IMG/VR virus record: IMGVR_UViG_3300048930_000409
Span: 1 to 64,000 of that record
Reading direction: 5' to 3' (one strand)
DNA: 64,000 nt
Origin: a virus
Shown: positions 1,323-16,680 of the stretch, piece after piece
Layout: every line of letters starts with the position of its first letter
Position numbering within the stretch: position 1 is the first letter of the stretch
Translations under genes and position numbers: made by a program
The notes under the pieces: model-generated
What the model was told of the DNA's origin: nothing
What the model saw: the letters and a program-made list of their open reading frames with translations, nothing else
Database searches by the model: none

Positions 1323-1395
1323 TGTCGTTCCCTCCGGAACCGGGGTCGCGTCCATCGCCGCCCCGCCCGTCGATTGTATCAACCAGTGCGCCCCT
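1323..1395 (-). promoter_or_regulatory. Promoter and SD-in-loop leader (leftward)
   Basis: On the minus strand a TTGATACAAT sequence (TACAAT as -10, near 1378) is followed by a GC-rich imperfect hairpin (GGGGCGGCG against CGCGACCCC), then GTTCC-GGAG-GGAAC (plus coordinates 1327-1340) and the ATG at 1322. Same design as the rightward leaders. Confidence 0.6.
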
Positions 1396-1511
1396 CCGCG
1401 CTTGAAAAGGCCCTCGAGAGTGGCCGAGCGAAAGCTGCATTCCCCACACTCTGGAGATGGAATCGAGCCCCGAGGCGTCCACTGCGCGATATCATCGGAA
1501 CGCGGGCGCCG

Positions 1512-1543
1512 AATGATGGCGGCCCACGGTCCCGGAGGGGAAC
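1512..1543 (+). promoter_or_regulatory. SD-in-loop leader
   Basis: AATGATGG (-10-like, 512-519) is followed after a short GC-rich stretch by TCCC-GGAG-GGGA (1530-1541): a 4-bp stem with the SD as tetraloop. The ATG follows at 1544. No good -35 box. Confidence 0.5.
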
Positions 1544-1891
1544 ATGTCAGAGGCCCGAATTTTCTCGTACATGGTGGTGCGTGCCATCACGGTCGAACCG
1601 GATGTCTACGTCACGATGCAAGTCTGGCGCGGCGTGGCCGACGTCACGGAAGGCTCCAGCTCGACCCCGGATGACGCCCCGGCGCGGGCTCGCGCCATCG
1701 AGGATGCCATCGCCACATGGACGCATCGCTCGCGTACGGGCAACGCGACGTTCGTCGAAGTGCGGCACGTCATTCTGGAAATCTACCCCGACGGGCACAC
1801 GGACATCGTGGAATCCTATTCCGAGTTCGTGGTCGGCGGGATGCACCTCGAAAACAAGCTGCCCGCCCTCGACGCGCGGTATCGCTCGTAA
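1544..1891 (+). CDS. Hypothetical protein
   Basis: A 115-residue protein with a beta-rich pattern (VVRAITVEPDVYVTMQVW, then VRHVILEIYPDG) and a central Ala-rich helix (RARAIEDAIATW). It is a single-gene unit: its own leader upstream, a terminator-like hairpin downstream (1904-1921). Family not recognised. Confidence 0.7.
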   Translation: MSEARIFSYMVVRAITVEPDVYVTMQVWRGVADVTEGSSSTPDDAPARARAIEDAIATWTHRSRTGNATFVEVRHVILEIYPDGHTDIVESYSEFVVGGMHLENKLPALDARYRS

Positions 1892-1903
1892 CGCCCCGAC
1901 CCG

Positions 1904-1922
1904 AGGCCCCTACGGGGGCCTT
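1904..1922 (+). terminator. Terminator-like hairpin
   Basis: AGGCCCC-tac-GGGGGCCT followed by TT. Compact GC-rich stem with a 3-nt loop just after the stop at 1891; only a weak T-tract. Confidence 0.5.
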
Positions 1923-1998
1923 GGCTTCCGCGTCACGCACCCAGGCAAAGCTTTGCCACCCCCATGAAAACAGAGGCGAAAGCCGACGTCTCCGTTGA

Positions 1999-2054
1999 TA
2001 CAATGGGGGCCACGGCGCCGCCATCGGCGCCCGACATCCCGGAGGGGATACATC
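1999..2054 (+). promoter_or_regulatory. Promoter, hairpin and SD-in-loop leader
   Basis: GTTGATACAATGGG (TACAAT at 1999-2004) is followed by the perfect hairpin GGCGCCG-ccat-CGGCGCC (2014-2031) and by ATCCC-GGAG-GGGAT (2036-2049), a 5-bp stem with the SD as tetraloop. The ATG is at 2055. No clear -35. Confidence 0.65.
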
Positions 2055-2471
2055 ATGGAGTTCACCACCGCCGTTTGCACCGCCTGTCTCGCCGAGTTCG
2101 ACGAACCGCTCGCCGACTCCGCGGGCGACACGCACCTTTGCCCGGCGTGCAACGGGCACGAGATTGACGGCACCGAGCCGAGCGTCCCGCCCACCTACCG
2201 CCACGTCAACGCGTACGAGGTCGGCCGATGCTACGGCGGGCCGGAGGAAGGCGGATGGTGGTACGACGCGGGCACGCCGCTCGGGAGCATCATGGTGGAG
2301 AACATCCCCGAGAACATCGAGGCCGGCAAAACCCTGTTGCGGGCCGTGTTCGGGCCAGGGTACGAGGGCAACCGCGACCGCCACTCGGCCGCCGGTGAAG
2401 AGAACCTGGAAATCTACGTCGAAGACCACGTCGCCCGCCCGTTCCCCGCGAGCCGCCCCCGGTACGAGTGA
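2055..2471 (+). CDS. Zinc-ribbon hypothetical protein
   Basis: A 138-residue protein. The N-terminus carries a two-knuckle zinc ribbon, CTAC near residues 8-11 and CPAC near 29-32, separated by an acidic loop. The C-terminal part is unassigned (YEVGRCYGG, GAGKT-like motifs absent). The start after the structured leader is preferred to the upstream frame, which is leader sequence. Zinc ribbons of this type recur in many small genes here (2055, 3324, 8862, 10662, 14064, 15182, 25010) and usually bind nucleic acid or protein; its partner is unknown. Confidence 0.7.
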   Translation: MEFTTAVCTACLAEFDEPLADSAGDTHLCPACNGHEIDGTEPSVPPTYRHVNAYEVGRCYGGPEEGGWWYDAGTPLGSIMVENIPENIEAGKTLLRAVFGPGYEGNRDRHSAAGEENLEIYVEDHVARPFPASRPRYE

Positions 2472-2482
2472 CCCACCCCCGG

Positions 2483-2500
2483 CCGCGCCTTCGGGCGCGG
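2483..2500 (+). terminator. UUCG-loop hairpin
   Basis: CCGCGCC-ttcg-GGCGCGG directly after the stop at 2471. A C(UUCG)G tetraloop gives a very stable RNA hairpin. There is no T-tract, so it may act as a 3'-end stabiliser rather than a terminator. Confidence 0.5.
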
Positions 2501-2583
2501 TCCACCTACACGCAGGGCAGGGAAAGCTCTGCCTGGGCTGGACAGCACCCCAGAAGTCAGCCCCGCAGCCATCGGTTTTACAG

Positions 2584-2659
2584 TGGACCAGTCCATCGCT
2601 GGTCGATATCATGGGGTGTTGGTTGCGTGGCGCGACCAACGCACCCCGGAGGGGGCGAC
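2584..2659 (+). promoter_or_regulatory. Promoter, long hairpin and SD-in-loop leader
   Basis: TGGACC (584-589), 17 bp, TATCAT (607-612). The transcript would begin with a long hairpin, GGGGTGTTGGTTGCG (613-627) pairing with 631-647, then CCCC-GGAG-GGGG (644-655). The CCCC belongs to both hairpins, so the two structures compete: closing the large hairpin frees the SD region, opening it lets the small SD hairpin form. Confidence 0.7.
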
Positions 2660-2965
2660 ATGAGCAAGACGACCGGTTCCTTGGCCCGTACGACGCAGGT
2701 TCACCGTTTCGACAGCACGGAGGCCGCGTACGACGCGTGCCAGTGCGACGACGCGGTGCAGTCGGGTCACATCCTCTGGATTCCGTCCGAGCACGTCGTC
2801 GGCATCGCGGGCACCTGGCCTGTGGCCGTGTCGACTGACCGGGGTGAGCTGCACACCACGACCGACCCCCTGCTGGGAGGCCGCGTGTCGGCCGCCAACA
2901 TCGCCCTCGCGGTGGCCTTCGCGCGGGAACGGGGCCTGTCGGTGCAGCGCGTGTTCGCCGAATAA
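2660..2965 (+). CDS. Hypothetical protein
   Basis: A 101-residue protein behind its own leader. Pattern of short strands and one Ala-rich helix (AANIALAVAFARERG near 78-92). One Cys pair-like motif (DACQCDD) but no zinc ribbon. Single-gene unit; the next promoter lies within 10 bp of its stop. Family not recognised. Confidence 0.65.
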   Translation: MSKTTGSLARTTQVHRFDSTEAAYDACQCDDAVQSGHILWIPSEHVVGIAGTWPVAVSTDRGELHTTTDPLLGGRVSAANIALAVAFARERGLSVQRVFAE

Positions 2966-2970
2966 CGGAG

Positions 2971-3045
2971 TCGACATCGCGATTCCTGCGTGACATCATC
3001 ATGGGGTCGGCAATCGCGCCGACCCCGTCTCCCGGAGGGGATGAC
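2971..3045 (+). promoter_or_regulatory. Promoter, perfect hairpin and SD-in-loop leader
   Basis: TCGACA (2971-2976), 17 bp, CATCAT (2994-2999). A perfect 9-bp stem follows, GGGGTCGGC (3003-3011) with GCCGACCCC (3018-3026), then TCCC-GGAG-GGGA (3030-3041) and the ATG at 3046. Confidence 0.7.
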
Positions 3046-3327
3046 ATGAAGAACGACCATGACCTCCACGTGGCCCGCCGCACGGCCCGCCGCATCCGCA
3101 TGCTGGCCTACGCGTTCGCGTATCAGCGCCGCCAGGGTATTTCCACTCCCATCGTCCGCATCTCTACTATCACGTTCGCGTGTGCGTCGCGGAGCGACCG
3201 CCTGCACGTGTTGGCCCGGATGCGCGGGGCAGGCGTGTACTGCACGCCCTACCGCGATGCCGTCTCCCCGTGGGCCGTGGCGGGCGACATCACGAAGGCT
3301 CGCGCGTTGATGGGCGGTGCGCGATGA
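3046..3327 (+). CDS. Hypothetical basic protein
   Basis: A 93-residue Arg-rich protein (HVARRTARRIRMLAYAFAYQRRQG in the N-terminal third). First gene of an operon running to about 5,744. Its stop overlaps the next start (ATGA at 3324). The basic helix could bind nucleic acid, but no motif settles this. Confidence 0.65.
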   Translation: MKNDHDLHVARRTARRIRMLAYAFAYQRRQGISTPIVRISTITFACASRSDRLHVLARMRGAGVYCTPYRDAVSPWAVAGDITKARALMGGAR

Positions 3328-3725
3328 AGCTCCCGAGCACCATCGAATTTCAGCCCCGCGAGATGCGCTTCCTGGTGGAGGATTCCGAGCGGGAGGATGA
3401 CGACCGCTTCCTCGCCCTGCCCGCCCGGTACGAGGTGTGCCCCCGGTGCGAGGGGAAAGGCACGCACTGGCACTCGGCGTTCGACGGCGGTATCACGCAG
3501 GAAGATCGCGACCGGGATTGGGATGATGAGTCCTGGGCGGGCCTGATGTCTGGGCGTTACGACGTCCAGTGCGAGGAATGCGAAGGCAAGCGCGTCGTGC
3601 CCGTGCCGGTCGAGTCCCGCACGACGCCCGAGGCCGAGCACGCCTTCCAGCTGTACACGTCCTACCTGGAGGACGAGGCGGACTACGCCGCCGAACGCGC
3701 CATGGAGCGGAGGATGGGATGCTGA
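3324..3725 (+). CDS. DnaJ-type zinc-finger protein
   Basis: A 133-residue protein with two CxxCxGx(G/R) knuckles: CPRCEGKG (about residues 39-46) and CEECEGKR (about 79-86). This is the layout of the DnaJ cysteine-rich zinc domain, here without a J-domain, so it is a stand-alone zinc protein rather than a chaperone. The flanks are acidic. The 15182 gene has the same pair of knuckles. Coupled by overlap to both neighbours. Confidence 0.7.
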   Translation: MKLPSTIEFQPREMRFLVEDSEREDDDRFLALPARYEVCPRCEGKGTHWHSAFDGGITQEDRDRDWDDESWAGLMSGRYDVQCEECEGKRVVPVPVESRTTPEAEHAFQLYTSYLEDEADYAAERAMERRMGC

Positions 3726-3937
3726 TCACACACCGAGAAATCAACCTGTTGAGGCGCATTTTTCTCTACAAACCCGACCGGTTTGTCTTCGAGATCTACC
3801 GGGGCCGCGTCCTCGTCACGGCCATCGCGCCCACGTGGCGCAGCTGCTGGGAGTGGAACCCCGACCCGATGTACCCGAACGGCGGGTACTGGCGCCCCGG
3901 CGGCGTCCGCGACCTCGAGGCCGCCGTCAATGACTGA
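3719..3937 (+). CDS. Hypothetical protein
   Basis: A 72-residue protein rich in aromatics (RRIFLYKPDRFVFEIYRG; WRSCWEWNPDPMYP). It starts 7 nt inside the end of the preceding gene. Probably a small beta-sheet domain; family not recognised. Confidence 0.6.
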   Translation: MLITHREINLLRRIFLYKPDRFVFEIYRGRVLVTAIAPTWRSCWEWNPDPMYPNGGYWRPGGVRDLEAAVND

Positions 3938-3946
3938 GAGGCTCGC

Positions 3947-4198
3947 ATGAGCAGCGATGGAAAGTGGTTAGCGGGCGCCGCCCTGGTCGTCTCCGTATTC
4001 ACATCCGTAGGCTTCTACAAAGCCTGCGAGTTTCGCGAGAGGGAAGCGGCGCGGCGCTACCGGTGTGTCACGCCGACGCAGACGTTCGAGCACGTCCAGG
4101 TCGGCTACACCTCCCACGGGTCGTGGCTTCTCATTCAAGACAACGGTCTTGAAATCAGAGGCTCCGGCCCCCTGTCCTGCACGGAGATTCTGCCATGA
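3947..4198 (+). CDS. Small membrane-anchored protein
   Basis: An 83-residue protein with an N-terminal hydrophobic segment (about residues 7-24, WLAGAALVVSVFTSVGFY) lacking a clear cleavage site, then a basic stretch and a compact C-terminal part with three Cys in all. Likely anchored in the inner membrane. It overlaps the next gene by ATGA. Confidence 0.6.
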   Translation: MSSDGKWLAGAALVVSVFTSVGFYKACEFREREAARRYRCVTPTQTFEHVQVGYTSHGSWLLIQDNGLEIRGSGPLSCTEILP

Positions 4199-4410
4199 AC
4201 ACCCACGACTACGAAGTCTTGGCCGAGGCGTTCGGCCTCTCGCTGGCCGATACCGCCGACGACACCGCCCGCAGCACCGTGCTGCGTGTGCTTGGCAACG
4301 TGACACGCATGCTGACCGAGACCTACCCCCGATTCCGGCAGGGGAACTTCGTGGGGCAGGTCTACGAAAACGAAGTTCTGATCCGACGACGGAGGTTGTC
4401 CCAGTCATGA
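4195..4410 (+). CDS. Hypothetical protein
   Basis: A 71-residue, mostly helical protein (YEVLAEAFGLSLADTADDTARSTVLRV and so on). Coupled by ATGA overlaps to the genes on each side. Family not recognised. Confidence 0.6.
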   Translation: MNTHDYEVLAEAFGLSLADTADDTARSTVLRVLGNVTRMLTETYPRFRQGNFVGQVYENEVLIRRRRLSQS

Positions 4411-4670
4411 GCACCATCAAGGAACGCAACACGCGCACGGCCCTCGTGTCGCTGTTTCCCTCGGACGCGCAGATCGTCGAGGCCCGCGCCGTCGTCACGG
4501 ACAACGTCCTGACGTGCCTGCGCATCGAGGCCGTCGACACGGACGCGGACCAAGTCCGTCACTTGATCGACATCGGATCGCTGTCCAACCTCAACGCCCT
4601 GATCGGCGGCCTCGTGGCGTTGCGCGACCACGTCCAGCTGATGGGACCGGATGACCTGGAGGAAAAGTGA
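4407..4670 (+). CDS. Hypothetical protein
   Basis: An 87-residue protein. The N-terminal half is strand-like (TALVSLFPSDAQIVEARAVV), the C-terminal half helical (SNLNALIGGLVALRDHVQLM). The ATG at 4407 overlaps the preceding stop; the longer open frame from 4065 is a shadow. Family not recognised. Confidence 0.6.
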   Translation: MSTIKERNTRTALVSLFPSDAQIVEARAVVTDNVLTCLRIEAVDTDADQVRHLIDIGSLSNLNALIGGLVALRDHVQLMGPDDLEEK

Positions 4671-4915
4671 CCGAAATCGCGATGGCATCGCTCACGCTAC
4701 TGACGATTGTCTGCGCACATGAAACCTACCGTGTCTACCGGAGGCACCGCGCGTTCGCCGCCGTCATGAAGCTGGGACGGGTGTGGCTTTTCCTCGAGCA
4801 CTCGCGGGGCCGAGTGATTGCAGGCACGCCCCGTGATGCAGAGCTCCGCGATGCCCAGAACATCATCCTCGCTGCGCGGGCATTCGCCTTGTCTGAACTG
4901 GAGAGGTACCTGTGA
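4667..4915 (+). CDS. Small protein with N-terminal hydrophobic segment
   Basis: An 82-residue protein starting with GTG that overlaps the previous stop (GTGA). Residues 4-18 are hydrophobic (IAMASLTLLTIVCAH) followed by YRVYRRHR, as in a short N-in membrane anchor with a basic cytoplasmic flank. C-terminal helix. Function unknown. Confidence 0.55.
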   Translation: MTEIAMASLTLLTIVCAHETYRVYRRHRAFAAVMKLGRVWLFLEHSRGRVIAGTPRDAELRDAQNIILAARAFALSELERYL

Positions 4916-5421
4916 ACTTCGACGACTACAACGCCGTCCGGCAGATGGCTCGCGAGCAGTTCAACTATTTCGAGCGAGACCAGCACAACGTCGCGCTGTC
5001 CGCCGCCATCGGTCACTTCCAGAGCGTCGTCAAAGATCTGGAAGACATTCGGGACGCGGTCCAGAAAGGGACCATGGAAGATTGGTCAGTCTACCAGCAT
5101 GTACAGTGGGCCTTCGAGCGCATCCATGGCCGCCGGCCCGCGAATACAGGCGACATGCGCCGGACTGTCAACGATGATGGGCGTACGGCGCCGATACCGG
5201 CCGCCAGTTACGGTTCGGAGGAACCGCCCATGCTCGCCAACGCCCCCGGCAAACTGTACCTGACCGTGGCCCCCGACGGTACCGTCTCCTTGTGGGACGC
5301 GCTCGAAACCGCCAACCACGCGCTCAGGGAAGCCCTGTGCATCCTCCCGCTCACGGATGAGCAGATGGCCGAGCTGCGCCGCGCCCACGCCATCGCCAAG
5401 GCCAAGGTCGAACCGAGATGA
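4912..5421 (+). CDS. Hypothetical protein with an internal leader in frame
   Basis: A 169-residue open frame starting with GTG in a GTGA overlap. Residues 1-80 form a helical domain (QMAREQFNYFERDQHNVALSAAI). Residues about 87-106 translate a sequence that looks like one of the phage's own promoter-leader modules (5150-5229), and a second start with the SD in a perfect loop follows at 5230. It is either a protein plus a nested C-terminal product, or a fusion of two former genes by loss of a stop. Confidence 0.6.
   Translation: MNFDDYNAVRQMAREQFNYFERDQHNVALSAAIGHFQSVVKDLEDIRDAVQKGTMEDWSVYQHVQWAFERIHGRRPANTGDMRRTVNDDGRTAPIPAASYGSEEPPMLANAPGKLYLTVAPDGTVSLWDALETANHALREALCILPLTDEQMAELRRAHAIAKAKVEPR
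5150..5229 (+). promoter_or_regulatory. Internal promoter and SD-in-loop leader
   Basis: GCGACA (5150-5155), 17 bp, GATGAT (5173-5178), then a GC-rich imperfect hairpin (GGCGTACGGCGCCG against CCGGCCGCC) and the perfect CGGTTC-GGAG-GAACCG (5211-5226), 6-bp stem with SD tetraloop. It ends 3 nt before the ATG at 5230. The whole module is translated in frame as part of 4912-5421. Confidence 0.6.
5230..5421 (+). CDS. Nested C-terminal product
   Basis: A 63-residue product in the same frame as 4912-5421, started from the internal SD-in-loop leader. Sequence pattern: a strand pair (GKLYLTVAPDGTVSLWD), then two helices (ALETANHALREALC; TDEQMAELRRAHAIA). It looks like a complete small domain, which favours an independent start. 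It overlaps the next gene by ATGA. Confidence 0.5.
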   Translation: MLANAPGKLYLTVAPDGTVSLWDALETANHALREALCILPLTDEQMAELRRAHAIAKAKVEPR

Positions 5422-5744
5422 TTACCATCCAGACACGCATCACCTTCACCGCGCCCGAAGTGGAGATGATCCACGCGCACGCCAACGCTGTCTGGGCCTA
5501 CATCGCGGGCGACTGTCTCGCTGGGTTGCGGGACATGGGCAGCAAGCGTACCTACATGACGCGGGCCGAAGTCCTGGACATGGTCCTGGACGCCGACCGC
5601 ATCGAAGAATCCATGCGCGGATTCATGCGCGACTGGGAACCGCGCCGTCGGGATGATTTCTTCGCTCGGTGGAACATCCTGGACTACAAGGCCCGCATCC
5701 GCCTGGTCACGCCCGCGTTCCCGCATCTGCGCTACGGCATGTGA
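5418..5744 (+). CDS. Hypothetical protein
   Basis: A 108-residue, mainly helical protein: EVEMIHAHANAVWAYIAGDCLAGL and VLDMVLDADRIEESMRGFMRDW. Last gene of the operon begun at 3046; a CTGCAG element follows. Family not recognised. Confidence 0.65.
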   Translation: MITIQTRITFTAPEVEMIHAHANAVWAYIAGDCLAGLRDMGSKRTYMTRAEVLDMVLDADRIEESMRGFMRDWEPRRRDDFFARWNILDYKARIRLVTPAFPHLRYGM

Positions 5745-5752
5745 CCAACCGT

Positions 5753-5847
5753 CTGCAGGGCCCTGCAGGGCCCGAACGGCACCGGGGACGGGTCACGGCA
5801 TGGCCCGACCCCATATCGCGTCCTGCAGGGGCGTGGAGGACCAAAGA
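5753..5847 (+). repeat. CTGCAG-bounded hairpin element, copy 1
   Basis: Tandem CTGCAGGGCCCTGCAGGG (5753-5770) at one end and CGTCCTGCAGG (5819-5829) at the other enclose a GC-rich hairpin (GGGGACGGGTC against GCCCGACCCC, loop containing GGCATG). Members of this family lie at operon junctions (also 14483, 37867, 57840; a decayed one at 8652). A GGAGG at 5836-5840 serves the gene starting at 5848. Confidence 0.6.
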
Positions 5848-6365: not shown

Positions 6366-6383
6366 CAGGCCATCACTGCATGG

Positions 6384-6430
6384 CATGATGGGTGGGTCGG
6401 CGATGATGCCGACCCGCCGTCCCGGAGGGG
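6384..6430 (+). promoter_or_regulatory. Promoter, hairpin and SD-in-loop leader
   Basis: CATGATGGG (-10 at 6384-6389; no good -35), then an 11-bp stem: GGTGGGTCGGC (6391-6401) with GCCGACCCGCC (6408-6418), then TCCC-GGAG-GGGA (6420-6431). Confidence 0.6.
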
Positions 6431-6433
6431 ATG

Positions 6434-6703
6434 ATGCTGACCTACTTCCAGTGCGAGTTCGCCCACTACGGCACCGTCGTCAAAGTGCATGTCGACCTCA
6501 AATCACACGAGGCGACCTACCTGGTGCTCCATCAGGGCGTCATCGTTCAGCACGGCCCCATCCACGCCCTCGTCCCTGGCACGACCTGGCGCGAGGTCGC
6601 CACCCCCGAACAGGTCCGTGACCTGATCCGTGCCCGCATCGAGGGCATTCACTTCTCCGCCCAGCTGCTGACGTCCCTGTCCACCCACACCGTAGGAGTG
6701 TAG
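6434..6703 (+). CDS. Hypothetical protein
   Basis: An 89-residue protein (90 if the ATG at 6431 is used; the second ATG has better SD spacing). Beta-rich N-terminus (FAHYGTVVKVHVDL, ATYLVLHQGVIVQHG) and a C-terminal helix. One nucleotide separates it from the next gene. Family not recognised. Confidence 0.65.
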   Translation: MLTYFQCEFAHYGTVVKVHVDLKSHEATYLVLHQGVIVQHGPIHALVPGTTWREVATPEQVRDLIRARIEGIHFSAQLLTSLSTHTVGV

Positions 6704-6704
6704 C

Positions 6705-7220: not shown

Positions 7221-7576
7221 ACCGCCGCAATTTCTTGACTGGTGTCATCGTCTCGGCTGCGGCCGGGGCGGTGACGCTTGCCACGGACGAGGAAGTCTCC
7301 GCATTCGGCACGGGCACGCCCGCCCGGCTGACGCCCAAGCCAGAGCTGTCCCCCGGTCTCGTCACTGGCCCCATCGACCCGGCGCTCTACGTCCAGACCA
7401 CGGACGGGCGCTACGTGGAGGTCGGCCTGATCCGAGACATCCTGATCTCGAGTGAGCCAGGCAGAGCGATGTCCGTCGAGGGCACGTTCATGTCTTGGGG
7501 GGCGCCGGACCCCTTGCTGCTCCGCGCGTTGATGGGCGAATTTCCAAGTGGACGACGGTTTCACTGGCGCCCATAA
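7217..7576 (+). CDS. Exported protein with twin-arginine signal
   Basis: A 119-residue protein whose N-terminus, MNRRNFLTG, fits the Tat motif (RRxFLx), followed by a moderately hydrophobic Ala/Gly-rich segment (VIVSAAAGAVTLA). It would be folded in the cytoplasm and exported by the host Tat system. The mature part (about 30-119) has short strands (LYVQTTDGRYVEVGLI) and no recognised domain. The start is GTG in a GTGA overlap. Tat substrates are rare among phage early genes. The promoter for the next operon lies inside its last codons. Confidence 0.65.
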   Translation: MNRRNFLTGVIVSAAAGAVTLATDEEVSAFGTGTPARLTPKPELSPGLVTGPIDPALYVQTTDGRYVEVGLIRDILISSEPGRAMSVEGTFMSWGAPDPLLLRALMGEFPSGRRFHWRP

Positions 7577-7631
7577 TGGTTGATGTCGGGGGCGGGCATG
7601 GTGCTTGCCCCCACCACGGTTCGGAGGAACC
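7549..7631 (+). promoter_or_regulatory. Promoter, hairpin and SD-in-loop leader
   Basis: TGGACG (7549-7554), 17 bp, CATAAT (7572-7577), a GGGGGCGGGC / GCTTGCCCCC hairpin (about 7588-7612), then GGTTC-GGAG-GAACC (7618-7631), a 5-bp stem with the SD as tetraloop, immediately before the ATG. Confidence 0.7.
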
Positions 7632-7853
7632 ATGGCTGGCTCACCGTACACCCCGCATGACATCCCTCGGGAACAGATCATGTCGGACGCGCTCGAAGCG
7701 TTCGAGCATGACTGGACTCACGTCCGTGCTGCGATGCGCGAACGGCGCAACGACCAGGAGTGGTCCGCAGAGTACCGCGCCGCCTACGCCTCGTGCATGT
7801 ACGATGGCGACCGTTTCATCAAGCGTCTTCAGGATCTGTCCCGTGCCCTCTAA
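7632..7853 (+). CDS. Hypothetical protein
   Basis: A 73-residue helical, charged protein (EAFEHDWTHVRAAMRERRNDQEW, then YRAAYASCMYDGDRFIKRLQ). First gene of a three-gene unit with 7843 and 8057. Family not recognised. Confidence 0.65.
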   Translation: MAGSPYTPHDIPREQIMSDALEAFEHDWTHVRAAMRERRNDQEWSAEYRAAYASCMYDGDRFIKRLQDLSRAL

Positions 7854-8786: not shown

Positions 8787-8861
8787 TGGACCAAGGATTC
8801 CTGATCGACGATGATACATGGGTCGGCGGGAATGGCCCGCTGACATGCATCGGAGGATGCC
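8787..8861 (+). promoter_or_regulatory. Promoter, hairpin and SD-in-loop leader
   Basis: TGGACC (8787-8792), 17 bp, GATGAT (8810-8815). Hairpin GTCGGCGGG (8822-8830) with CCCGCTGAC (8836-8844), then GCATC-GGAG-GATGC (8847-8860), 5-bp stem with SD tetraloop, and ATG at 8862. Confidence 0.7.
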
Positions 8862-9170
8862 ATGGTACGAGTAGTGCTGCAGTCCGACGGCGAACCTGCC
8901 ACCTTCGGACAGTTGATGTTCGGTGCGGAGTTCGTCAAGCACGTCCGGGGCAACAAGCCCGGACAGATGACGGTGACGTCTCTGGATGACCACGGACACC
9001 CTACGGTCCTGTTCGCTATGGACGTCGAGGATGTCGTGTGCGATGGTTGCAACACGGTCGTCGCGCCGCACGATCCCTGCCTGCTGGCGTACAACCGGCT
9101 GTCGTGCTGGACCTGCGCGACGCGGTACTTCCTGGGCTCCCTGGTGCCCACCCTCACGGAGGCCGAGTAG
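8862..9170 (+). CDS. Zinc-binding hypothetical protein
   Basis: A 102-residue protein. The C-terminal half has CDGC (about residues 60-63) and, 20 residues later, CWTC, forming a likely zinc site. The N-terminal half is strand-rich (VRVVLQSDGEPATFGQLMFG). Followed by the gene at 9172 with one base between. Family not recognised. Confidence 0.65.
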   Translation: MVRVVLQSDGEPATFGQLMFGAEFVKHVRGNKPGQMTVTSLDDHGHPTVLFAMDVEDVVCDGCNTVVAPHDPCLLAYNRLSCWTCATRYFLGSLVPTLTEAE

Positions 9171-9378: not shown

Positions 9379-9383
9379 CACAG

Positions 9384-9596
9384 TGGACATCCCCCGGCTG
9401 GCGGGGGATGATGTCCATGTTGGTTCGTCCCCGGTGGGACACGGAATTCTCCACCCCACCTTGAGTCACCCGTGAGGAGGGTCCGACGATGCGCTAGAGA
9501 CCACGCGATTCACTTCGCGCTTCGGAACACTTGCACGGGGGATGTGGGCTGGGTGCCCCGCCCCCCGTTTTTCCTGAAACGGTTCGGAGGAACCTC
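9384..9596 (+). promoter_or_regulatory. Attenuator-like leader with mini-ORF
   Basis: TGGACA (9384-9389), 17 bp, GATGAT (9407-9412). The 180-nt leader contains GAGGAGG (9474-9480) ideally placed before ATG-CGC-TAG (9489-9497), a two-codon mini-ORF. It also contains an intrinsic-terminator hairpin, CGGGGG (9536-9541) with CCCCCG (9562-9567) enclosing GGGC/GCCC, followed by TTTTT (9568-9572). Last comes GGTTC-GGAG-GAACC (9581-9594). A promoter, mini-ORF, terminator and SD hairpin in this order suggest attenuation. Confidence 0.65.
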
Positions 9597-10103
9597 ATGT
9601 CCGTCACCTATCCCGCGCCCCATCCCTCGGTCGCCGCCCCGCTGCTCGCGGCCGTCGAATCCCTGCTCAACCGCCCCGAGACGCTCGACATGGGCGTCTA
9701 CTATGACACGGACCCGGTCTGCGGCACGACGCTGTGCCTGTGCGGCCAGCTGGTCACCAACCACTACGCCAGTCTCGCGATGCCGGTGCCAGCCGACGTC
9801 GTCAAGACGAACTCCTGGTCGTCTGCGGCCCGCGCCATCACGGCGCTCACCGTGGAAGAGTGCAGTCGCCTGTTCCACACCATCGACTGGCCCGAGCCGT
9901 TCCGGACGCGCTACCGGGCGGCAGACGCCGCCCTCAGCGACCTGTACCACGTGTTCCGGCGACAGCCGGATAGTCCGATGGACCTCCCCATGAATCGGTG
10001 GACCGACCGCGAGCGGGCGGCCTACCGTAAAGTCGCCATGCGTCGGGTGCATATCCTCGCCGACCGCGTGGACGCGTTTCTGAACAACGACGACCACGCC
10101 TGA
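9597..10103 (+). CDS. Hypothetical protein, CGTxxC family
   Basis: A 168-residue paralogue of the 8057 gene: CGTTLCLCG motif near residues 42-50, then NHYASLAMPVPADV, a helical middle and a WPEPFRTRY segment, ending with a helical, charged C-terminus. It is preceded by the attenuator-like leader, the most elaborate in the window, so its dose is probably tightly set. Function unknown. Confidence 0.7.
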   Translation: MSVTYPAPHPSVAAPLLAAVESLLNRPETLDMGVYYDTDPVCGTTLCLCGQLVTNHYASLAMPVPADVVKTNSWSSAARAITALTVEECSRLFHTIDWPEPFRTRYRAADAALSDLYHVFRRQPDSPMDLPMNRWTDRERAAYRKVAMRRVHILADRVDAFLNNDDHA

Positions 10104-10608: not shown

Positions 10609-10661
10609 CATGATGGGTGGGTCGGGGAATGGACCCCGGCCCCATCCCGGAGGGGATGACC
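10609..10661 (+). promoter_or_regulatory. Promoter-like sequence, hairpin and SD-in-loop leader
   Basis: CATGATGGG (-10 at 10609-10614; no convincing -35), a GGGTCGGGG / CCCCGGCCC hairpin, then ATCCC-GGAG-GGGAT (10644-10657), a perfect 5-bp stem with SD tetraloop, and the ATG at 10662. Confidence 0.6.
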
Positions 10662-11009
10662 ATGTACGAGTTCACCAAACACGGCGGCGTGACTGTCACT
10701 TGTGGCGCGTGCCACGCCCAGACCCCCGCCCACACGACCACGCGCCTCCGCATCGGCGACCCGCCCTCGTGGATGAAAGTCGAAACCGGTCAGTGGGATT
10801 TCTCGCACGACTGCGCGGCGACCCGCATCCTCAAGCTGCCCCGGACGGACACGGTCGATGCCTGCCCCGCGTGCGTCGACCGTCTCGCTCGTCAGCGCCG
10901 CCAGGGCGGAAACGATTACCTGCCGCGCCCGACCGCCCCTCGCATCACGAACAACTACATGAAGGCGATGCCGCGCCTGATCAAGACCGGAAAGGCAGCG
11001 ACACCATGA
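10662..11009 (+). CDS. Zinc-ribbon hypothetical protein
   Basis: A 115-residue protein with CGAC (about 14-17) and CPAC (about 68-71), separated by a loop with a further HDC: a zinc ribbon. The C-terminus is basic (RLARQRRQGG). First gene of an operon that continues by ATGA overlaps to 12,813. The upstream part of the frame is leader. Confidence 0.7.
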   Translation: MYEFTKHGGVTVTCGACHAQTPAHTTTRLRIGDPPSWMKVETGQWDFSHDCAATRILKLPRTDTVDACPACVDRLARQRRQGGNDYLPRPTAPRITNNYMKAMPRLIKTGKAATP

Positions 11010-11966: not shown

Positions 11967-11978
11967 CGAGAGGACATC

Positions 11979-12463: not shown

Positions 12464-12813
12464 AGATCAGAATCAAGAAGCCCGCTGCCGCCCCGGCGCC
12501 TGCGCCACCGCGAGGCATCAAGCACTTGCCGGCCAGGACGGACGCCGAAGGGCTGAAGAACTACCATCGGAAGCCCCCGGTCGACAAGCGCATTTTGCTG
12601 CCGTCAGCCGGAGAAGTTCACGACATGTCGGCAGAACACCTGCTGCTCTGGAGCACGCTGACGTCGGAGTTCAACCGGGCGCTGCGCTTGGAGCGCGCTC
12701 GGCAACAGGCCATCAAGGAAGAAAAGCACGCATTGGCAAAGGTCGAGGCCGACACGCGGGACTCGGCCCTGGTCTACTGCTACGACAAGTACTCGGACTA
12801 CATCCCGTTCTAG
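12460..12813 (+). CDS. Hypothetical basic protein
   Basis: A 117-residue protein. It begins MKIRIKKPAAAPAPAPP, a Lys/Ala/Pro tail similar in style to the histone-like proteins at 12935 and 19215, then a helical, charged domain (SEFNRALRLERARQQAIKEEKHAL) ending YDKYSDYIPF. Last gene of the operon. Confidence 0.6.
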   Translation: MKIRIKKPAAAPAPAPPRGIKHLPARTDAEGLKNYHRKPPVDKRILLPSAGEVHDMSAEHLLLWSTLTSEFNRALRLERARQQAIKEEKHALAKVEADTRDSALVYCYDKYSDYIPF

Positions 12814-12827
12814 TCGCACGTTTGCAG

Positions 12828-12934
12828 TATACACCGAACCACTGGCGGTTTATCATTGGTTCATTGGATGCGGGCACGACGTCGGCATCTGACACGAACG
12901 GTTCGGTGAGAACCTGAACACCACGGAGGACATC
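12828..12934 (+). promoter_or_regulatory. Promoter and leader of the first histone-like gene
   Basis: TATACA (12828-12833), 17 bp, TATCAT (12851-12856). The leader has a direct repeat (CATTGGTTCATTGG), a relic SD-type hairpin GGTTC-ggtga-GAACC (12900-12914) that no longer holds an SD, and a separate ordinary SD (CGGAGGA, about 12924-12930) before the ATG. Confidence 0.55.
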
Positions 12935-13504
12935 ATGAAGCTCGGCATCGTGAAGAAGGCGGCGGTCAAGACCCCCGCACCGGCGAAGAAGAAAGTGGCC
13001 GCGAAGGCCAAGACCACCGACATGGTGACGGCCTCACTCGAGAACGCCGCCCCGGCCCCGGACGAGGCGTCCGCCCCCGCCGCCAAGGCCGACAAGACGG
13101 CCAAGGCCGAGAAGGCCCCCAAGGCGCCCAAGACCCCGAAGGAGAAGGCGCCGTCGAAGTTCGTCTCCCGCGACGCCCACGCGTTCACGCTGCCGAACGG
13201 CGACAAGTTCAACGACCGCCTGCGCGTGTCCGAGTTCCAGGACCTGACGTTCTACCAGAACGGCACCAAGAAGCTCACGGACGCCCAGCTGGTCGAGCTC
13301 TGGCAGGAGCAGTTCCCGACCGCGTGCGGCGGGGCGTTCAACGTCTTCCACGTCAAGGGTGCCCGCCGCGACTACAACGCGGGCAAGCACTCCAAGATGT
13401 TCGACGGCGTCAAGACCGGCGACCGCGTCTCGGTCGAGTACGACGCCACCAAGGCCGTCGTGCCCGTCCGTGGCAAGGCCGCCCCCACGACCGCGACGGC
13501 GTAG
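12935..13504 (+). CDS. Histone H1-like DNA-binding protein
   Basis: A 189-residue protein. Residues 1-75 are a Lys/Ala/Pro tail with AKK/KAPK repeats, like the tails of histone H1 and bacterial H1-like proteins. Residues about 76-180 form a globular part with a helix TDAQLVELWQEQFP and the segment HVKGARRDYNAGKH. The 19215 gene shares that module (TDAQLAEAMRVEFP, then HVAGIRSGYNTGAR). It has its own promoter and a strong terminator, consistent with an abundant nucleoid protein that coats phage or host DNA. Confidence 0.75.
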   Translation: MKLGIVKKAAVKTPAPAKKKVAAKAKTTDMVTASLENAAPAPDEASAPAAKADKTAKAEKAPKAPKTPKEKAPSKFVSRDAHAFTLPNGDKFNDRLRVSEFQDLTFYQNGTKKLTDAQLVELWQEQFPTACGGAFNVFHVKGARRDYNAGKHSKMFDGVKTGDRVSVEYDATKAVVPVRGKAAPTTATA

Positions 13505-13526
13505 GCCCTCCGACTCCGTCGTCGCG

Positions 13527-13574
13527 CCCGGTGTGCCTTCCCCTCCCAGTCGAAGGCACACCGGGTTTTTCTCT
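13527..13574 (+). terminator. Strong intrinsic terminator
   Basis: A perfect 14-bp stem, CCCGGTGTGCCTTC (13527-13540) with GAAGGCACACCGGG (13552-13565), an 11-nt loop and TTTTTCTCT. The best intrinsic terminator in the window, directly after the histone-like gene. Confidence 0.9.
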
Positions 13575-13584
13575 GGAGATATGC

Positions 13585-13815
13585 ATGGCCCTCAAGTGCT
13601 GCCCCGCGATGGTGGTCACGGTGCTACCTTCACACACGCCGCTGCGGTCGCGCACCATCGAACGCTTGTGCGGTGAGCCGCTCAATCCTGGGGAAGAGCT
13701 GTGCGAGCACCACCGGGCCGAGCAGGCCGAACTGAGCCGAAGGATTGCTCGCCGTAACGCCCAGAAGTTGCAGGATTACATGAAAGGCAAAGCCCGTGCC
13801 AAGACGGACGTTTGA
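13585..13815 (+). CDS. Cys/His-containing hypothetical protein
   Basis: A 76-residue protein: KCCPAMV at the N-terminus, then RLCGEPLNPGEELCEHHR, a likely zinc site (two Cys, His-His), and a basic C-terminal helix (SRRIARRNAQKLQDYMKGK). SD CTGGAGA upstream of the ATG. It starts just after the terminator, so it may rely on read-through. Overlaps the next gene by 20 nt. Confidence 0.6.
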   Translation: MALKCCPAMVVTVLPSHTPLRSRTIERLCGEPLNPGEELCEHHRAEQAELSRRIARRNAQKLQDYMKGKARAKTDV

Positions 13816-14080
13816 CATCCAGGGTCATACGACAGAAGTCGTGCGCCTGCCGTTCTTCGCGGGTCCGGATGGACACCTCGCGATCGAGGCGCACTTCATG
13901 AACAAGTGTCTGTCCGTGTTGAAGATGGTCTCGTCCAAGGCCGGTGATTCCGATACGGTCATTCACTTGACCGACACACGGCTCATCTACGGGATAGAGT
14001 GTCTGGATTCACTCATTCTCGGGTTGACGGCGTTCCGAGAAGAACTGCAGAAGAGAGCCAACCGTGGCGACATCCGATAG
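13796..14080 (+). CDS. Hypothetical protein
   Basis: A 94-residue protein with a GTG start inside the end of the previous gene. Strand-rich N-terminus (FDIQGHTTEVVRLPFF), then helices (LIYGIECLDSLILGLTAFREELQK). The second half resembles the 4407 product in layout (strand, then a helix with LxxLIxGLxAFRxxL), possibly a distant paralogue. Confidence 0.6.
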   Translation: MPRRTFDIQGHTTEVVRLPFFAGPDGHLAIEAHFMNKCLSVLKMVSSKAGDSDTVIHLTDTRLIYGIECLDSLILGLTAFREELQKRANRGDIR

Positions 14081-14270
14081 TGGCATTTGCCCGCGCTGCG
14101 GCGAACCGATGCCCCAGGGCGAAGCCGACCACGCCACGGCGTGCATCTACGAGCCGTGCAACGAAGTCTCGTGCAAGGCGTTGCGGAATCCGCTGACCTT
14201 CGATCAGATGACCGACGCCCAGCTGCACTTCCGCTACCACAAGATCGTCATCCCCCGGAGGCGTCCATGA
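14064..14270 (+). CDS. Zinc-finger hypothetical protein
   Basis: A 68-residue protein starting with GTG. CPRCGEPMPQGEADHATAC (about residues 9-27) gives a CxxC...HxxxC zinc site; another Cys pair follows (EPCNEVSCKAL). The C-terminus contains TDAQLHFRYHK. Overlaps both neighbours. Confidence 0.6.
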   Translation: MATSDSGICPRCGEPMPQGEADHATACIYEPCNEVSCKALRNPLTFDQMTDAQLHFRYHKIVIPRRRP

Positions 14271-14476
14271 CCGTGACTGAATTACATGAACACTTGGAGT
14301 CGATGATGGCTTGCAACCCGGCCATCGCCGAGCTCCCCGTCCGCGTGGTGCGCCCGAACGAAGCTACTCCCGCGACCCCGGTGGACGGGATTGCCTACCA
14401 CGCGTTCCTCGGTGAAGTCGTACTCGTGGCCCAGGTCCCGTACACGGTCGTCGAGCGGGCGAAACCCGGCCTGTAA
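14267..14476 (+). CDS. Hypothetical protein
   Basis: A 69-residue protein: N-terminal helix (VTELHEHLESMMACNPAIAEL) then strands (LPVRVVRPNE, AFLGEVVLVAQVPYTVV). Last gene before a CTGCAG element. Family not recognised. Confidence 0.6.
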   Translation: MTVTELHEHLESMMACNPAIAELPVRVVRPNEATPATPVDGIAYHAFLGEVVLVAQVPYTVVERAKPGL

Positions 14477-14482
14477 CATGTT

Positions 14483-14570
14483 CTGCAGGACACGCATGGC
14501 CCGGCCCGGCCCGTGGTATGGGCGGCGCCCCGTTCGTGTCCTGCAGGACCCCTAAGCCACGGAGGTGGCC
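14483..14570 (+). repeat. CTGCAG-bounded hairpin element, copy 2, with SD-in-loop
   Basis: CTGCAGGACACG (14483-14494) and CGTGTCCTGCAG (14535-14546) form a perfect 12-bp inverted repeat around a GC-rich hairpin with GTGGTATG in its loop. CCTAAG follows, then GCCAC-GGAG-GTGGC (14556-14569), a stem with SD tetraloop next to the ATG at 14571. This copy joins the two leader families in one junction. Confidence 0.7.
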
Positions 14571-14822
14571 ATGTCCGACGCCCCCATTCGTACCGTCACG
14601 CGTCGTTTCGGCTTTGACCGCGACGACCTGCAAGCCATCGCCGCCTGGTGGGTCGAGTCCGGCCAGGAACGGTGGGACAAGTCCGCCGAGGCCACGACGC
14701 CGGCTTGCGAGATGGAGATTCAAGACTTCCTGGATGCCTGTGTCCGAGGCAACCTCGCGGCCATCAAGGCAGAGCTCGCTGCCCGTGAGCCCCAGAAGAT
14801 GAAGGTCCGCATCAAGCGGTGA
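14571..14822 (+). CDS. Hypothetical protein
   Basis: An 83-residue helical, acidic protein (DDLQAIAAWWVESGQERWDKSAE, MEIQDFLDACVRGNLAAIKAEL) with a basic end (KMKVRIKR, similar to the start of the 12460 product). The GTG at 14565 in frame is part of the SD hairpin. Family not recognised. Confidence 0.65.
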   Translation: MSDAPIRTVTRRFGFDRDDLQAIAAWWVESGQERWDKSAEATTPACEMEIQDFLDACVRGNLAAIKAELAAREPQKMKVRIKR

Positions 14823-14830
14823 TTTTGCAG

Positions 14831-14903
14831 GTGACACCCGCCCCGCCTTTCGACGACGATGGGTGTGGGCGGATGGACCGCCCGACCCACATCGGAGGAT
14901 GTG
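14831..14903 (+). promoter_or_regulatory. Promoter, hairpin and SD-in-loop leader
   Basis: GTGACA (14831-14836), 18 bp, GACGAT (14855-14860). Hairpin GGGTGTGGGCGG / CCGCCCGACCC, then CACATC-GGAG-GATGTG (14888-14903), a perfect 6-bp stem with SD tetraloop that directly abuts the ATG at 14904. Confidence 0.65.
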
Positions 14904-15185
14904 ATGCGAGACGGAATTACGGTACACCCTGGCGGTGGCATGACCATCGAGGGCCCCATCCACATCGAGCTGTACCGGTTGATGGCGACCCGGTCGGCGC
15001 TGAAGCTGGAAGTCCGAACGGGCATGCAGATGTCCCGTGGCCGGTCGGCGGCCTCGGTCGCCCGGACCATCGTCGCGCTGCCAAAGCGCAACAAGGCCGA
15101 GCTGCTCGCCCAGCTGGAGGCGTACATCGAGACGTTTTGCGCCAACAACGGTCTCTCGGCCCCGTCGTGGGTGGGTGAGCGATGA
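14904..15185 (+). CDS. Hypothetical protein
   Basis: A 93-residue protein: short strands, then helices with basic residues (LEVRTGMQMSRGRSAASVARTIVALPKRNKAELLAQLEAYIE). The upstream part of the frame is leader. Stop overlaps the next start. Family not recognised. Confidence 0.65.
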   Translation: MRDGITVHPGGGMTIEGPIHIELYRLMATRSALKLEVRTGMQMSRGRSAASVARTIVALPKRNKAELLAQLEAYIETFCANNGLSAPSWVGER

Positions 15186-15580
15186 GCAACATCGAAGTTT
15201 GCCCCAAGTGCTACGGGGCCAAGGAGATCACCATCTTCCGCCAGACGAAGACGTGCGGCATGTGCGGCGGGCGCGGCTTCGTCGTCTATGGCACACCGCC
15301 CCCGGACGGCGCTTACGTCCTGCGCGCGACACCGGCGCCCCCGGACAAGCAAGGCTACCCGCTGGCGGCCGGGGGGTTCGACTTCACCCTGACCATCGAG
15401 GAGTACGCGGACGCGGACCTCGGCCCCGGTCTGCATGTGCGCGTCTGGATTCACCACCCGAACGAGGCCTTTGACTGGAACGGCACGCCCATCGGGACGT
15501 TCCAAGACCTCGAGCACGCGGCGCGGGCGTGCAATACGCTGTTCCCCGCGTATCCCCCTGCATTCGTCACCACGTCGTAA
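15182..15580 (+). CDS. DnaJ-type zinc-finger protein
   Basis: A 132-residue protein. CPKCYGAK (about residues 7-14) and CGMCGGRG (about 25-32) are the paired knuckles of a DnaJ-type zinc domain. The C-terminal 90 residues include a beta-rich section (FDFTLTIEEYADADLGPGLHVRVWIHH). No J-domain. Related in zinc layout to the 3324 gene. Confidence 0.7.
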   Translation: MSNIEVCPKCYGAKEITIFRQTKTCGMCGGRGFVVYGTPPPDGAYVLRATPAPPDKQGYPLAAGGFDFTLTIEEYADADLGPGLHVRVWIHHPNEAFDWNGTPIGTFQDLEHAARACNTLFPAYPPAFVTTS

Positions 15581-15587
15581 GGAGCGT

Positions 15588-16040
15588 ATGGACACCTCAC
15601 ACACCATGCCACTGGCGGACGCCATCGAGTTGATGGGCCGCGATTGGAACGACTTCACTCCCTGGTACACGGCGCTGGCCGAGAGACATCCGGCCGCATT
15701 CCCGTTGGCGCAGGCACCTATCCGCTGGCTGATGGCCATGCGCGGGTGGAAGTACCTGCGCGACGTCCCTCCGGGCCTGCCGACCCAGACCGGCGTGCCC
15801 CAGGACGCGCAATCCTGGTACGAGCTCAACATCACCGAGCGCCCGTTCCTGGTCATCGTCGGCGAGGTCGTGACGATCCTGTTCCTCGCCGAACTGCACT
15901 ACGAAGCGTACGAGTTCATCCGGCGCGTGCGCGACCTGATCGCGTGGCTCGGCGAGAACGACGACTACGACGAAGGCCAACTGTTCCACATCGTTCAGGA
16001 GTACGTGCGGCCGACAACGGCCATGCGCGAACTCTCGTAG
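15588..16040 (+). CDS. Hypothetical protein
   Basis: A 150-residue, largely helical protein with many aromatics (WNDFTPWYTALAERHPAAFPLAQAPIRWLMAMRGWKYL in two helices) and an acidic C-terminal region (GENDDYDEGQLFHIVQEYV). AAGGAGC precedes the ATG. Not predicted to be exported. Family not recognised. Confidence 0.65.
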   Translation: MDTSHTMPLADAIELMGRDWNDFTPWYTALAERHPAAFPLAQAPIRWLMAMRGWKYLRDVPPGLPTQTGVPQDAQSWYELNITERPFLVIVGEVVTILFLAELHYEAYEFIRRVRDLIAWLGENDDYDEGQLFHIVQEYVRPTTAMRELS

Positions 16041-16047
16041 GAGACCC

Positions 16048-16293
16048 ATGCCGCCGAAAAAGCTCAACCCCCGCACCAACGTCGAAGCCGCCATGGATTC
16101 CTTGCTACTCGCCGGACAAGCACGGCTGTGCATCGTGGCCACGTTCGACGTTCGGAAGTTGAAGACGTCTGACGTGCTCCAGACCGTCACCGAAGCTCTC
16201 GACGCCCTTCGGAATCAGGGTAAAATCGAGGCCGCCACCATCGAGTGGCCCCCGACCGACCCCCACGTCGAGGACGTCACACACCTGAACTAG
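16048..16293 (+). CDS. Hypothetical protein
   Basis: An 81-residue protein with an alternating alpha-beta pattern (ARLCIVATFDVRKL, SDVLQTVTEALDALRNQGKI, EAATIEWPPTDP), like a small ferredoxin-fold domain. GGAGACC precedes the ATG. Function unknown. Confidence 0.6.
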   Translation: MPPKKLNPRTNVEAAMDSLLLAGQARLCIVATFDVRKLKTSDVLQTVTEALDALRNQGKIEAATIEWPPTDPHVEDVTHLN

Positions 16294-16301
16294 AGGAGCC
16301 C

Positions 16302-16592
16302 ATGCCACACGACATCGTCACAGCCCAGATGTCCCCCACCCAGCGGGACACCATGTACCGACTGGCGAACACCGTCGCAGAAAGCTTGATCGCGGCGGGC
16401 GGCAACGAAGACGTTCGCATCTCGACGGTCGCGCTGCTGCGCGTCATCGCGGCCGTCATGGCGCGAAATCCCTGGGGCCGAGATCCGGTGACGCAGGCGC
16501 ACATCAGTGAGCTGTTGCCGCTGTACGTCCGCGCCGCCATCGAGTCCAACGACGGGAGTCGCATCATCCGACCGTTTTCCAAGTTGGTGTAG
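16302..16592 (+). CDS. Hypothetical helical protein
   Basis: A 96-residue helical protein (SPTQRDTMYRLANTVAESLIAAGG, TVALLRVIAAVMARNPWG, ISELLPLYVRAAIESNDG). GAGGAGC precedes the ATG. Family not recognised. Confidence 0.6.
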   Translation: MPHDIVTAQMSPTQRDTMYRLANTVAESLIAAGGNEDVRISTVALLRVIAAVMARNPWGRDPVTQAHISELLPLYVRAAIESNDGSRIIRPFSKLV

Positions 16593-16627
16593 CCCCGCAA
16601 GACAGGCACACGCCCATCGCTTGACGG

Positions 16628-16680
16628 TATGATGGGTGTGTGCCGTGGACGGACCCCGGCCCGCATCGGAGGATGCGACG
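16628..16680 (+). promoter_or_regulatory. Promoter-like sequence and SD-in-loop leader
   Basis: TATGATGGG (-10 at 16628-16633, no clear -35), a GC-rich hairpin (GTGTGCCGTGG / CGGACCCCGGCC, imperfect), then CGCATC-GGAG-GATGCG (16662-16677), a 6-bp stem with SD tetraloop, and ATG at 16681. Confidence 0.6.

What the first reader, a model, noticed from the sequence alone, without database searches (positions are those of the whole stretch)
1323..16680. Shine-Dalgarno GGAG held as the tetraloop of a mini-hairpin, repeated with changing stems
At least twelve leaders carry the SD as NNNN-GGAG-N'N'N'N': TCCC/GGGA (1530, 3030, 6420), ATCCC/GGGAT (2036, 10644), CCCC/GGGG (644 of 2584 leader), GCATC/GATGC (8847), CACATC/GATGTG (14888), CGCATC/GATGCG (16662), GGTTC/GAACC (7618, 9581), CGGTTC/GAACCG (5211), GCCAC/GTGGC (14556), and GTTCC/GGAAC on the minus strand (1327). 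The stems differ but stay complementary, so the structure, not the sequence, is being kept. This points to a translation control element recognised by, or protecting from, a phage or host factor.
Basis: seen in the sequence. Interest (0 to 1): 0.8.

Follow-up and report, generated by a model that had tools for sequence, protein, structure and literature searches.

The report
Phage ribosome-binding sites in variable hairpins
In one stretch of a little-known phage genome, almost every gene that starts a new transcript carries its ribosome-landing sequence in the loop of a tiny RNA hairpin whose stem sequence changes but stays paired, which points to a shared, structure-based start signal whose function is still untested.

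Summary
All 14 hairpins exist at the stated places. GGAG occurs 516 times in the window; stems of at least 4 Watson-Crick pairs flank 14 leader copies but only 3 of the other 502. Shuffling 3' arms among leaders never reproduced the pairing (0 of 100,000). Five of six stem positions show changes on both sides.

The hairpin is tied to promoter-proximal genes: 13 of 18 early-region genes with an upstream gap of at least 50 bp have it, against 0 of 86 other genes. The usual leader is -10 box, hairpin 1 near the predicted transcript 5' end, SD hairpin, start codon. Hairpin 1 is supported (leader halves pair better than swapped halves, 1 in 20,000). One relative (TerL 79% identical) carries three SD hairpins, one re-stemmed around a five-base loop; more distant relatives show no enrichment.

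Most likely it is a structure-conserved translation-initiation module that displays the SD and keeps it out of competing G+C-rich pairings. Whether a protein recognises it is untested; CsrA and RegB sequence requirements are not met. Closest known are the SAS/ESAS elements of cluster K mycobacteriophages, conserved in sequence rather than in pairing. New variant of a known kind; all evidence is sequence-based.

The parts
1327..1340 (-). SD hairpin GTTCC-GGAG-GGAAC, leader of gene 1005-1322
1342..1364 (-). hairpin 1 (loop ATGGA) of the same leader
1373..1378 (-). -10-like TACAAT
1490..1495 (+). -10-like TATCAT
1504..1525 (+). hairpin 1
1530..1541 (+). SD hairpin TCCC-GGAG-GGGA, leader of gene 1544-1891
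1999..2004 (+). -10-like TACAAT
2014..2031 (+). hairpin 1
2036..2049 (+). SD hairpin ATCCC-GGAG-GGGAT, leader of gene 2055-2471 (orthologue in L036 also has an SD hairpin)
2607..2612 (+). -10-like TATCAT (with -35-like TGGACC)
2616..2643 (+). hairpin 1
2644..2655 (+). SD hairpin CCCC-GGAG-GGGG, leader of gene 2660-2965
2997..3002 (+). -10-like CATCAT (2994-2999 is an alternative)
3003..3026 (+). hairpin 1
3030..3041 (+). SD hairpin TCCC-GGAG-GGGA, leader of gene 3046-3327
5173..5178 (+). -10-like GATGAT inside ORF 4912-5421
5211..5226 (+). SD hairpin CGGTTC-GGAG-GAACCG before an internal in-frame ATG (5230)
6384..6389 (+). -10-like CATGAT
6394..6415 (+). hairpin 1
6418..6433 (+). SD hairpin CGTCCC-GGAG-GGGATG (4 Watson-Crick pairs plus 2 with G-U), leader of gene 6434-6703
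7572..7577 (+). -10-like CATAAT (with -35-like TGGACG)
7588..7612 (+). hairpin 1
7618..7631 (+). SD hairpin GGTTC-GGAG-GAACC, leader of gene 7632-7853
8810..8815 (+). -10-like GATGAT (with -35-like TGGACC)
8822..8844 (+). hairpin 1
8847..8860 (+). SD hairpin GCATC-GGAG-GATGC, leader of gene 8862-9170
9581..9594 (+). SD hairpin GGTTC-GGAG-GAACC, leader of gene 9597-10103 (terminator-like hairpin upstream, no clear promoter)
10609..10614 (+). -10-like CATGAT
10619..10642 (+). hairpin 1
10643..10658 (+). SD hairpin CATCCC-GGAG-GGGATG, leader of gene 10662-11009
14556..14569 (+). SD hairpin GCCAC-GGAG-GTGGC, leader of gene 14571-14822 (promoter and hairpin 1 unclear)
14855..14860 (+). -10-like GACGAT
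14867..14883 (+). hairpin 1 (loop ATGGA)
14888..14903 (+). SD hairpin CACATC-GGAG-GATGTG, leader of gene 14904-15185
16628..16633 (+). -10-like TATGAT
16662..16677 (+). SD hairpin CGCATC-GGAG-GATGCG, leader of gene 16681-17406 (DUF2786/DUF7168 protein)

Best explanation
These are copies of a structured 5' leader used by promoter-proximal genes of the phage's non-structural gene region. A sigma-70-like promoter is followed by hairpin 1, which begins within a few bases of the predicted transcript 5' end, and then by a 4-6 bp mini-hairpin that shows GGAG as a tetraloop, 9-14 nt before the ATG. Shown by sequence: the hairpins, their covariation, their link to promoter-proximal starts, and their presence in a close relative. 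Inferred: the mini-hairpin is a translation-initiation module. It holds the SD in a local loop instead of a longer G+C-rich helix, and the 30S subunit nucleates on the loop and opens the short stem, so the stem sets the rate of de novo initiation on the first gene. Genes inside operons mostly overlap the previous stop codon and can be reached by coupled ribosomes without it. No trans-acting factor is required by this model.
For: Enrichment and covariation. Link to de novo starts: 13/18 early genes with gap >=50 bp against 0/86 others, Fisher 7e-13; among GGAG-bearing starts 13/16 against 0/40, 3e-10. Promoter-like hexamers score above those before other GGAG (p = 3e-6). Hairpin 1: own halves -252 kcal/mol in sum against -208 +/- 10 for swapped halves, 1 of 20,000 as low. 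In 12 leaders GGAG is predicted unpaired with mean probability 0.91-0.93, falling to about 0.5 when the SD hairpin is forbidden; other GGAG starts of the window average 0.38. Relative L036: the leader at 1340-1402 (-) pairs around the pentaloop GGAGG; the copy at 1197 (-) starts about 9 nt after the upstream stop codon without a promoter, which argues for translation rather than transcription or 5'-end protection; a third copy is at the contig end.
Against: Nothing here measures translation. A four-base loop cannot form a full SD/anti-SD helix without opening, so the hairpin (-6 to -10.5 kcal/mol) could repress rather than help. Forbidding pairs in an energy model is not an experiment, and the 0.38 for other starts is computed on stretches without known transcript ends. 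Gene 12935, the early gene with the second-highest total coding score, keeps a similar hairpin but has its SD outside it, which fits a repressive stem better. The orthologous leader in L042 has part of its SD in the stem. The L036 third copy and part of the window ensemble (2648, 3034, 1335) have competing folds.
Confidence: 0.45

Rival explanations
1. The hairpin is a lock and label: it keeps initiation low, and a phage or host RNA-binding protein that recognises a GGAG loop on a short stem represses or releases this set of genes together (CsrA-like logic, possibly a new protein).
For: The loop and closing C-G pair are invariant while stems vary, as expected for a loop- and shape-reading protein; SD hairpins exposing GGA are the known target shape of CsrA (PMC7366521); several genes across 15 kb share it, like a regulon; stems of -6 to -10.5 kcal/mol can slow initiation; gene 12935 has its SD outside the hairpin.
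Against: CsrA consensus ANGGA in only 1 of 14; no CsrA gene in the phage with a working control; invariance of CGGAGG is also explained by the SD itself plus its closing pair; no candidate protein was identified.
Confidence: 0.25
2. The leader mainly protects mRNA: hairpin 1 blocks 5'-end-dependent decay and the SD hairpin hides the single-stranded SD from nucleases, including RegB-like enzymes that cut GGAG.
For: Hairpin 1 begins within a few bases of the predicted 5' end and the two hairpins cover most of the leader; structure protects GGAG from T4 RegB, although RegB alone prefers GGA unpaired with the fourth G constrained (PMC3014915).
Against: The L036 copy at 1197 (-) is inside an operon without hairpin 1; the stem frames exactly the SD rather than any site; the 3' context does not fit the RegB consensus (2-4 of 7 positions); the RegB gene search had no working control.
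Confidence: 0.18
3. The two hairpins act on transcription, for example as a put-like antiterminator RNA or a pause/attenuation signal.
For: Two tandem hairpins directly after promoters, as I recall for HK022 put sites (from memory); a terminator-like hairpin precedes the 9581 copy.
Against: The second hairpin is always centred on the SD with a start codon 9-14 nt after GGAG begins; one relative copy has no promoter; stems vary freely.
Confidence: 0.05
4. The repeats are DNA-level inverted repeats (operators or recombination sites), or copies of one cassette whose pairing is only inherited.
For: Some copies are identical over 16 bp (ACGGTTCGGAGGAACC three times), so copying has happened; cluster K ESAS repeats are thought to be DNA sites.
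Against: About six different stem types with double changes at five positions; a DNA-binding protein would need a conserved sequence; the repeats are centred on the SD.
Confidence: 0.06

Closest known systems
Start-Associated Sequences (SAS) of cluster K mycobacteriophages (PMC3203893, PMC12699233)
   Same: Short repeated element on the SD a few bases before the start codon of many non-structural genes in one phage genome; flanks of GGG and CCC around ATAGGAG could form a short hairpin with the SD in the loop.
   Different: SAS is kept as a sequence: most copies are identical, and of 26 near-consensus variants in 8 phages 23 break a pair while 4 contain a compensated pair. Here the stem sequence changes freely and stays paired. 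SAS is absent from the window: 23 matches with up to 3 mismatches, 20 expected.
Extended SAS (ESAS) of cluster K mycobacteriophages (PMC3203893, PMC11373665)
   Same: A promoter plus an inverted repeat directly upstream of about half of the SAS copies.
   Different: The ESAS repeat contains the promoter and was judged unlikely to pair as RNA; here hairpin 1 lies downstream of the -10 and its halves pair better than swapped halves.
CsrA/RsmA target hairpins (PMC7366521)
   Same: GGA of the SD exposed in the loop of a short hairpin.
   Different: ANGGA is missing in 13 of 14; loop of 4 closed by C-G.
T4 RegB GGAG sites (PMC3014915)
   Same: GGAG in translation initiation regions of early phage mRNAs.
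   Different: RegB sites prefer an A-rich 3' context; here a G-rich or variable 3' arm follows.

Membership tests
Cluster K SAS | 13-bp consensus GGGATAGGAGCCC within two mismatches near start codons | tested here: not met
   Only one match with 2 mismatches (42572-42584), not at a leader; total at chance
Cluster K SAS | Repeated SD-overlapping element upstream of many non-structural genes | tested here: met
   14 copies, all in 1-17 kb
Cluster K ESAS | 17-bp imperfect inverted repeat overlapping a SigA-like promoter upstream of the SAS | tested here: not met
   Promoter-like hexamers present but the paired repeat lies after the -10 and is not one conserved sequence
CsrA target | GGA in a hairpin loop over the SD | tested here: met
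   GGAG tetraloop by prediction and covariation
CsrA target | ANGGA core | tested here: not met
   1 of 14
CsrA target | Binding by CsrA of phage or host | not testable with these tools
   No CsrA gene found in the phage; host unknown
RegB target | GGAGRAYARAA context | tested here: not met
   2-4 of 7 positions after GGAG
RegB target | A RegB enzyme present | tested here: inconclusive
   No hit, but no control rang
Rfam families | Match at the gathering score | tested here: not met
   Only three sub-threshold matches to eukaryotic families

The most novel reading that the evidence does not exclude
A phage-wide post-transcriptional regulon in which a so far unknown phage or host protein reads a GGAG tetraloop on any short stem and switches the promoter-proximal genes of the early region on or off together.
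Probability: 0.2. Interest if true: 0.85.

Novelty: new variant of a known kind. Interest (0 to 1): 0.58.

Why it matters
Single mRNAs with an SD in a hairpin are known, but here about 14 copies in one genome keep the pairing while the stem sequence changes, so natural compensatory variation is available as a ready-made test of how an SD displayed in a loop affects initiation. It also offers a question for the unexplained flanks of the cluster K SAS: whether they pair. If a factor reads the loop, it would be a new phage regulon; if not, it is a natural design for keeping the SD usable in G+C-rich leaders.

Tried and rejected
Exact DNA scans of IMG/VR for two stem types plus ATG gave single hits in unrelated contigs, no relatives. 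Protein scans with polymerase and primase found only a 100% identical contig lacking the region; the 16681 protein found none. TerL and gene-2055 alignments gave about 120 further loci, but stems of >=4 were as frequent at GGAG with a start (53 of 6122) as without (56 of 7249). A covariance model built from ten leaders gave only weak hits outside its training set: L036:1340-1388 at E 1.6 and the held-out window leader 7591 at E 2.1, none convincing elsewhere; it has only six pairs, because hairpin 1 does not align by column. The RNAalifold consensus recovers only the SD hairpin. A TerL scan of bacterial genomes found no host. My first forbidden-hairpin fold was invalid, because the constraint unpaired the bases altogether; one search replaces it. 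Cluster K phages do not show an excess of SD-in-loop hairpins with stems >=5; a 12-bp hairpin with an ATAGGAG loop in Aminay is not at its SAS. Chance and base composition as explanation: rejected.
Full report
What the window is. The window is bases 1-64000 of a 76,211-base IMG/VR virus record, 64% G+C. A stretch of about 126 bp at the window's start recurs at the far end of the contig except for the last few bases, so the record probably covers nearly the whole genome, although IMG/VR calls it linear. Polymerase, primase, SNF2 helicase, AAA_24 and PD-(D/E)XK proteins lie on the plus strand, and terminase and virion-side genes on the minus strand. Named phages are only distantly related: the best terminase matches are about 27% identical. 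The host is unknown.

Observation. Of 516 GGAG on both strands 17 have a stem of 4 or more Watson-Crick pairs: 14 leaders and 3 others, so the background is 3 of 502. The sum of contiguous pairs is 70, against 29.9 +/- 5.9 after shuffling 3' arms among leaders (0 of 100,000 as high). On the ungapped alignment A3, 89% of cells pair, five of six pairs have double changes, and sliding the partner by one to three columns destroys the signal. There are about six stem types (NTCCC, CCCC, GTTCC, GGTTC, CATC, CCAC). Three copies share ACGGTTCGGAGGAACC, so some copying has occurred and the 14 are not all independent.

Where they occur. My gene calls are a simple codon-usage scheme and not curated. With them, 13 of 18 genes in the first 17.5 kb that have an upstream gap of at least 50 bp carry the hairpin, against 0 of 28 tightly packed genes there and 0 of 58 elsewhere (Fisher 7e-13). 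Restricted to starts with GGAG, it is 13 of 16 against 0 of 40 (3e-10). The 14th copy lies inside ORF 4912-5421, in frame with an internal ATG. The cut of 50 bp was chosen by me, but no hairpin lies at a smaller gap.

Anatomy. A -10-like hexamer ends 31-45 nt before GGAG in 12 of 14 leaders, and hexamer scores exceed those before other GGAG (p = 3e-6). The -35 matches are partial. A stricter promoter scan of 1-17.5 kb found 7 sites against 2.2 expected; three are in front of these leaders (2648, 3034, 7623) and one in front of gene 12935. Between -10 and SD lies hairpin 1. Its halves pair better with each other than when swapped among leaders (1 of 20,000; mean z -2.0), but not every leader shows it: 14561 and 16668 do not have low folding energy, and 9586 has a terminator-like hairpin instead. 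Several hairpin-1 loops contain ATGG. Transcript ends are predicted from the -10, not mapped.

Relatives. L036 (14.4 kb, TerL 79% identical) carries three SD hairpins in its early region: one with a promoter-like hexamer and a pentaloop GGAGG, one on the orthologue of gene 2055 starting about 9 nt after the previous stop codon, and one at the contig end. An orthologue in L042 (50% identical) has hairpin AGAGGG-ATGGA-CCCTCT followed by CCCTCT-GAAGG-AGAGGG, two mutually exclusive folds. Among about 120 further loci there is no enrichment.

What it does. Folding 12 leaders from the predicted 5' end gives GGAG unpaired with mean probability 0.91-0.93. If the SD hairpin is forbidden this falls to about 0.5, and other GGAG starts average 0.38. 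This supports display of the SD, away from competing pairing, and is my first choice. It remains a model result, and the same stem (-6 to -10.5 kcal/mol) could slow initiation. Gene 12935, the early gene with the second-highest total coding score, keeps a GGTTC-GGTGA-GAACC hairpin but has a free SD downstream, which hints at a repressive stem; it is one case. The L036 copy without promoter argues that the SD hairpin is about translation rather than transcription or 5'-end protection.

Known relatives in kind. SAS and ESAS of cluster K mycobacteriophages are the nearest published elements: an SD-overlapping repeat at many starts, about half of the copies with a promoter-bearing inverted repeat. 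Across eight cluster K phages I found that SAS flanks can pair (GGG/CCC around ATAGGAG), but variants mostly break the pairing (23 of 26 near variants, 4 with a compensated pair), and there is no excess of long SD-in-loop stems. The window lacks the SAS sequence. CsrA targets share the shape but not the ANGGA core; RegB sites share GGAG but not the context. No Rfam family matches. My paper searches found no description of a phage with many re-stemmed SD hairpins, but the library is partial.

Verdict. A real, selected-looking RNA structure, a new variant of phage start-associated elements. Function and any recognising factor are open.

Noticed in passing
window 21-34 and 62-75; L003 12203-12216 and 12244-12257: Two perfect GTTCCACGTGGAAC palindromes (ParB-box-like, from memory) inside a roughly 126-bp near-terminal repeat of the contig.
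   Followed up: partly
window 4912-5421: A promoter-like hexamer and SD hairpin inside an ORF precede an in-frame ATG at 5230, suggesting a nested 63-residue product.
   Followed up: no
window 12898-12915: Leader of gene 12935 has GGTTC-GGTGA-GAACC, a hairpin like the others but with the SD (12926) moved downstream out of it.
   Followed up: partly
window 9383-9500: Promoter-like site followed by GTCCC-CGGT-GGGAC and a two-codon minigene ATGCGCTAG with an SD-like GAGGAGGG; its -10 region shares 26 bp with L036.
   Followed up: no
L042 8953-9013: Leader of the gene-2055 orthologue can form two mutually exclusive hairpins, AGAGGG-ATGGA-CCCTCT or CCCTCT-GAAGG-AGAGGG.
   Followed up: partly
window 5762, 5822, 14540, 17510 and others: CCTGCAGG palindromes occur 11 times in the window, several in intergenic leaders.
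   Followed up: no
L160 (Aminay) 9152: A 12-bp hairpin with loop ATAGGAG lies 36 nt upstream of a true SAS.
   Followed up: no
L003 11561-12053, window 2520: GGGAAAGCT motif repeated six times near the contig ends; also twice in L036.
   Followed up: no
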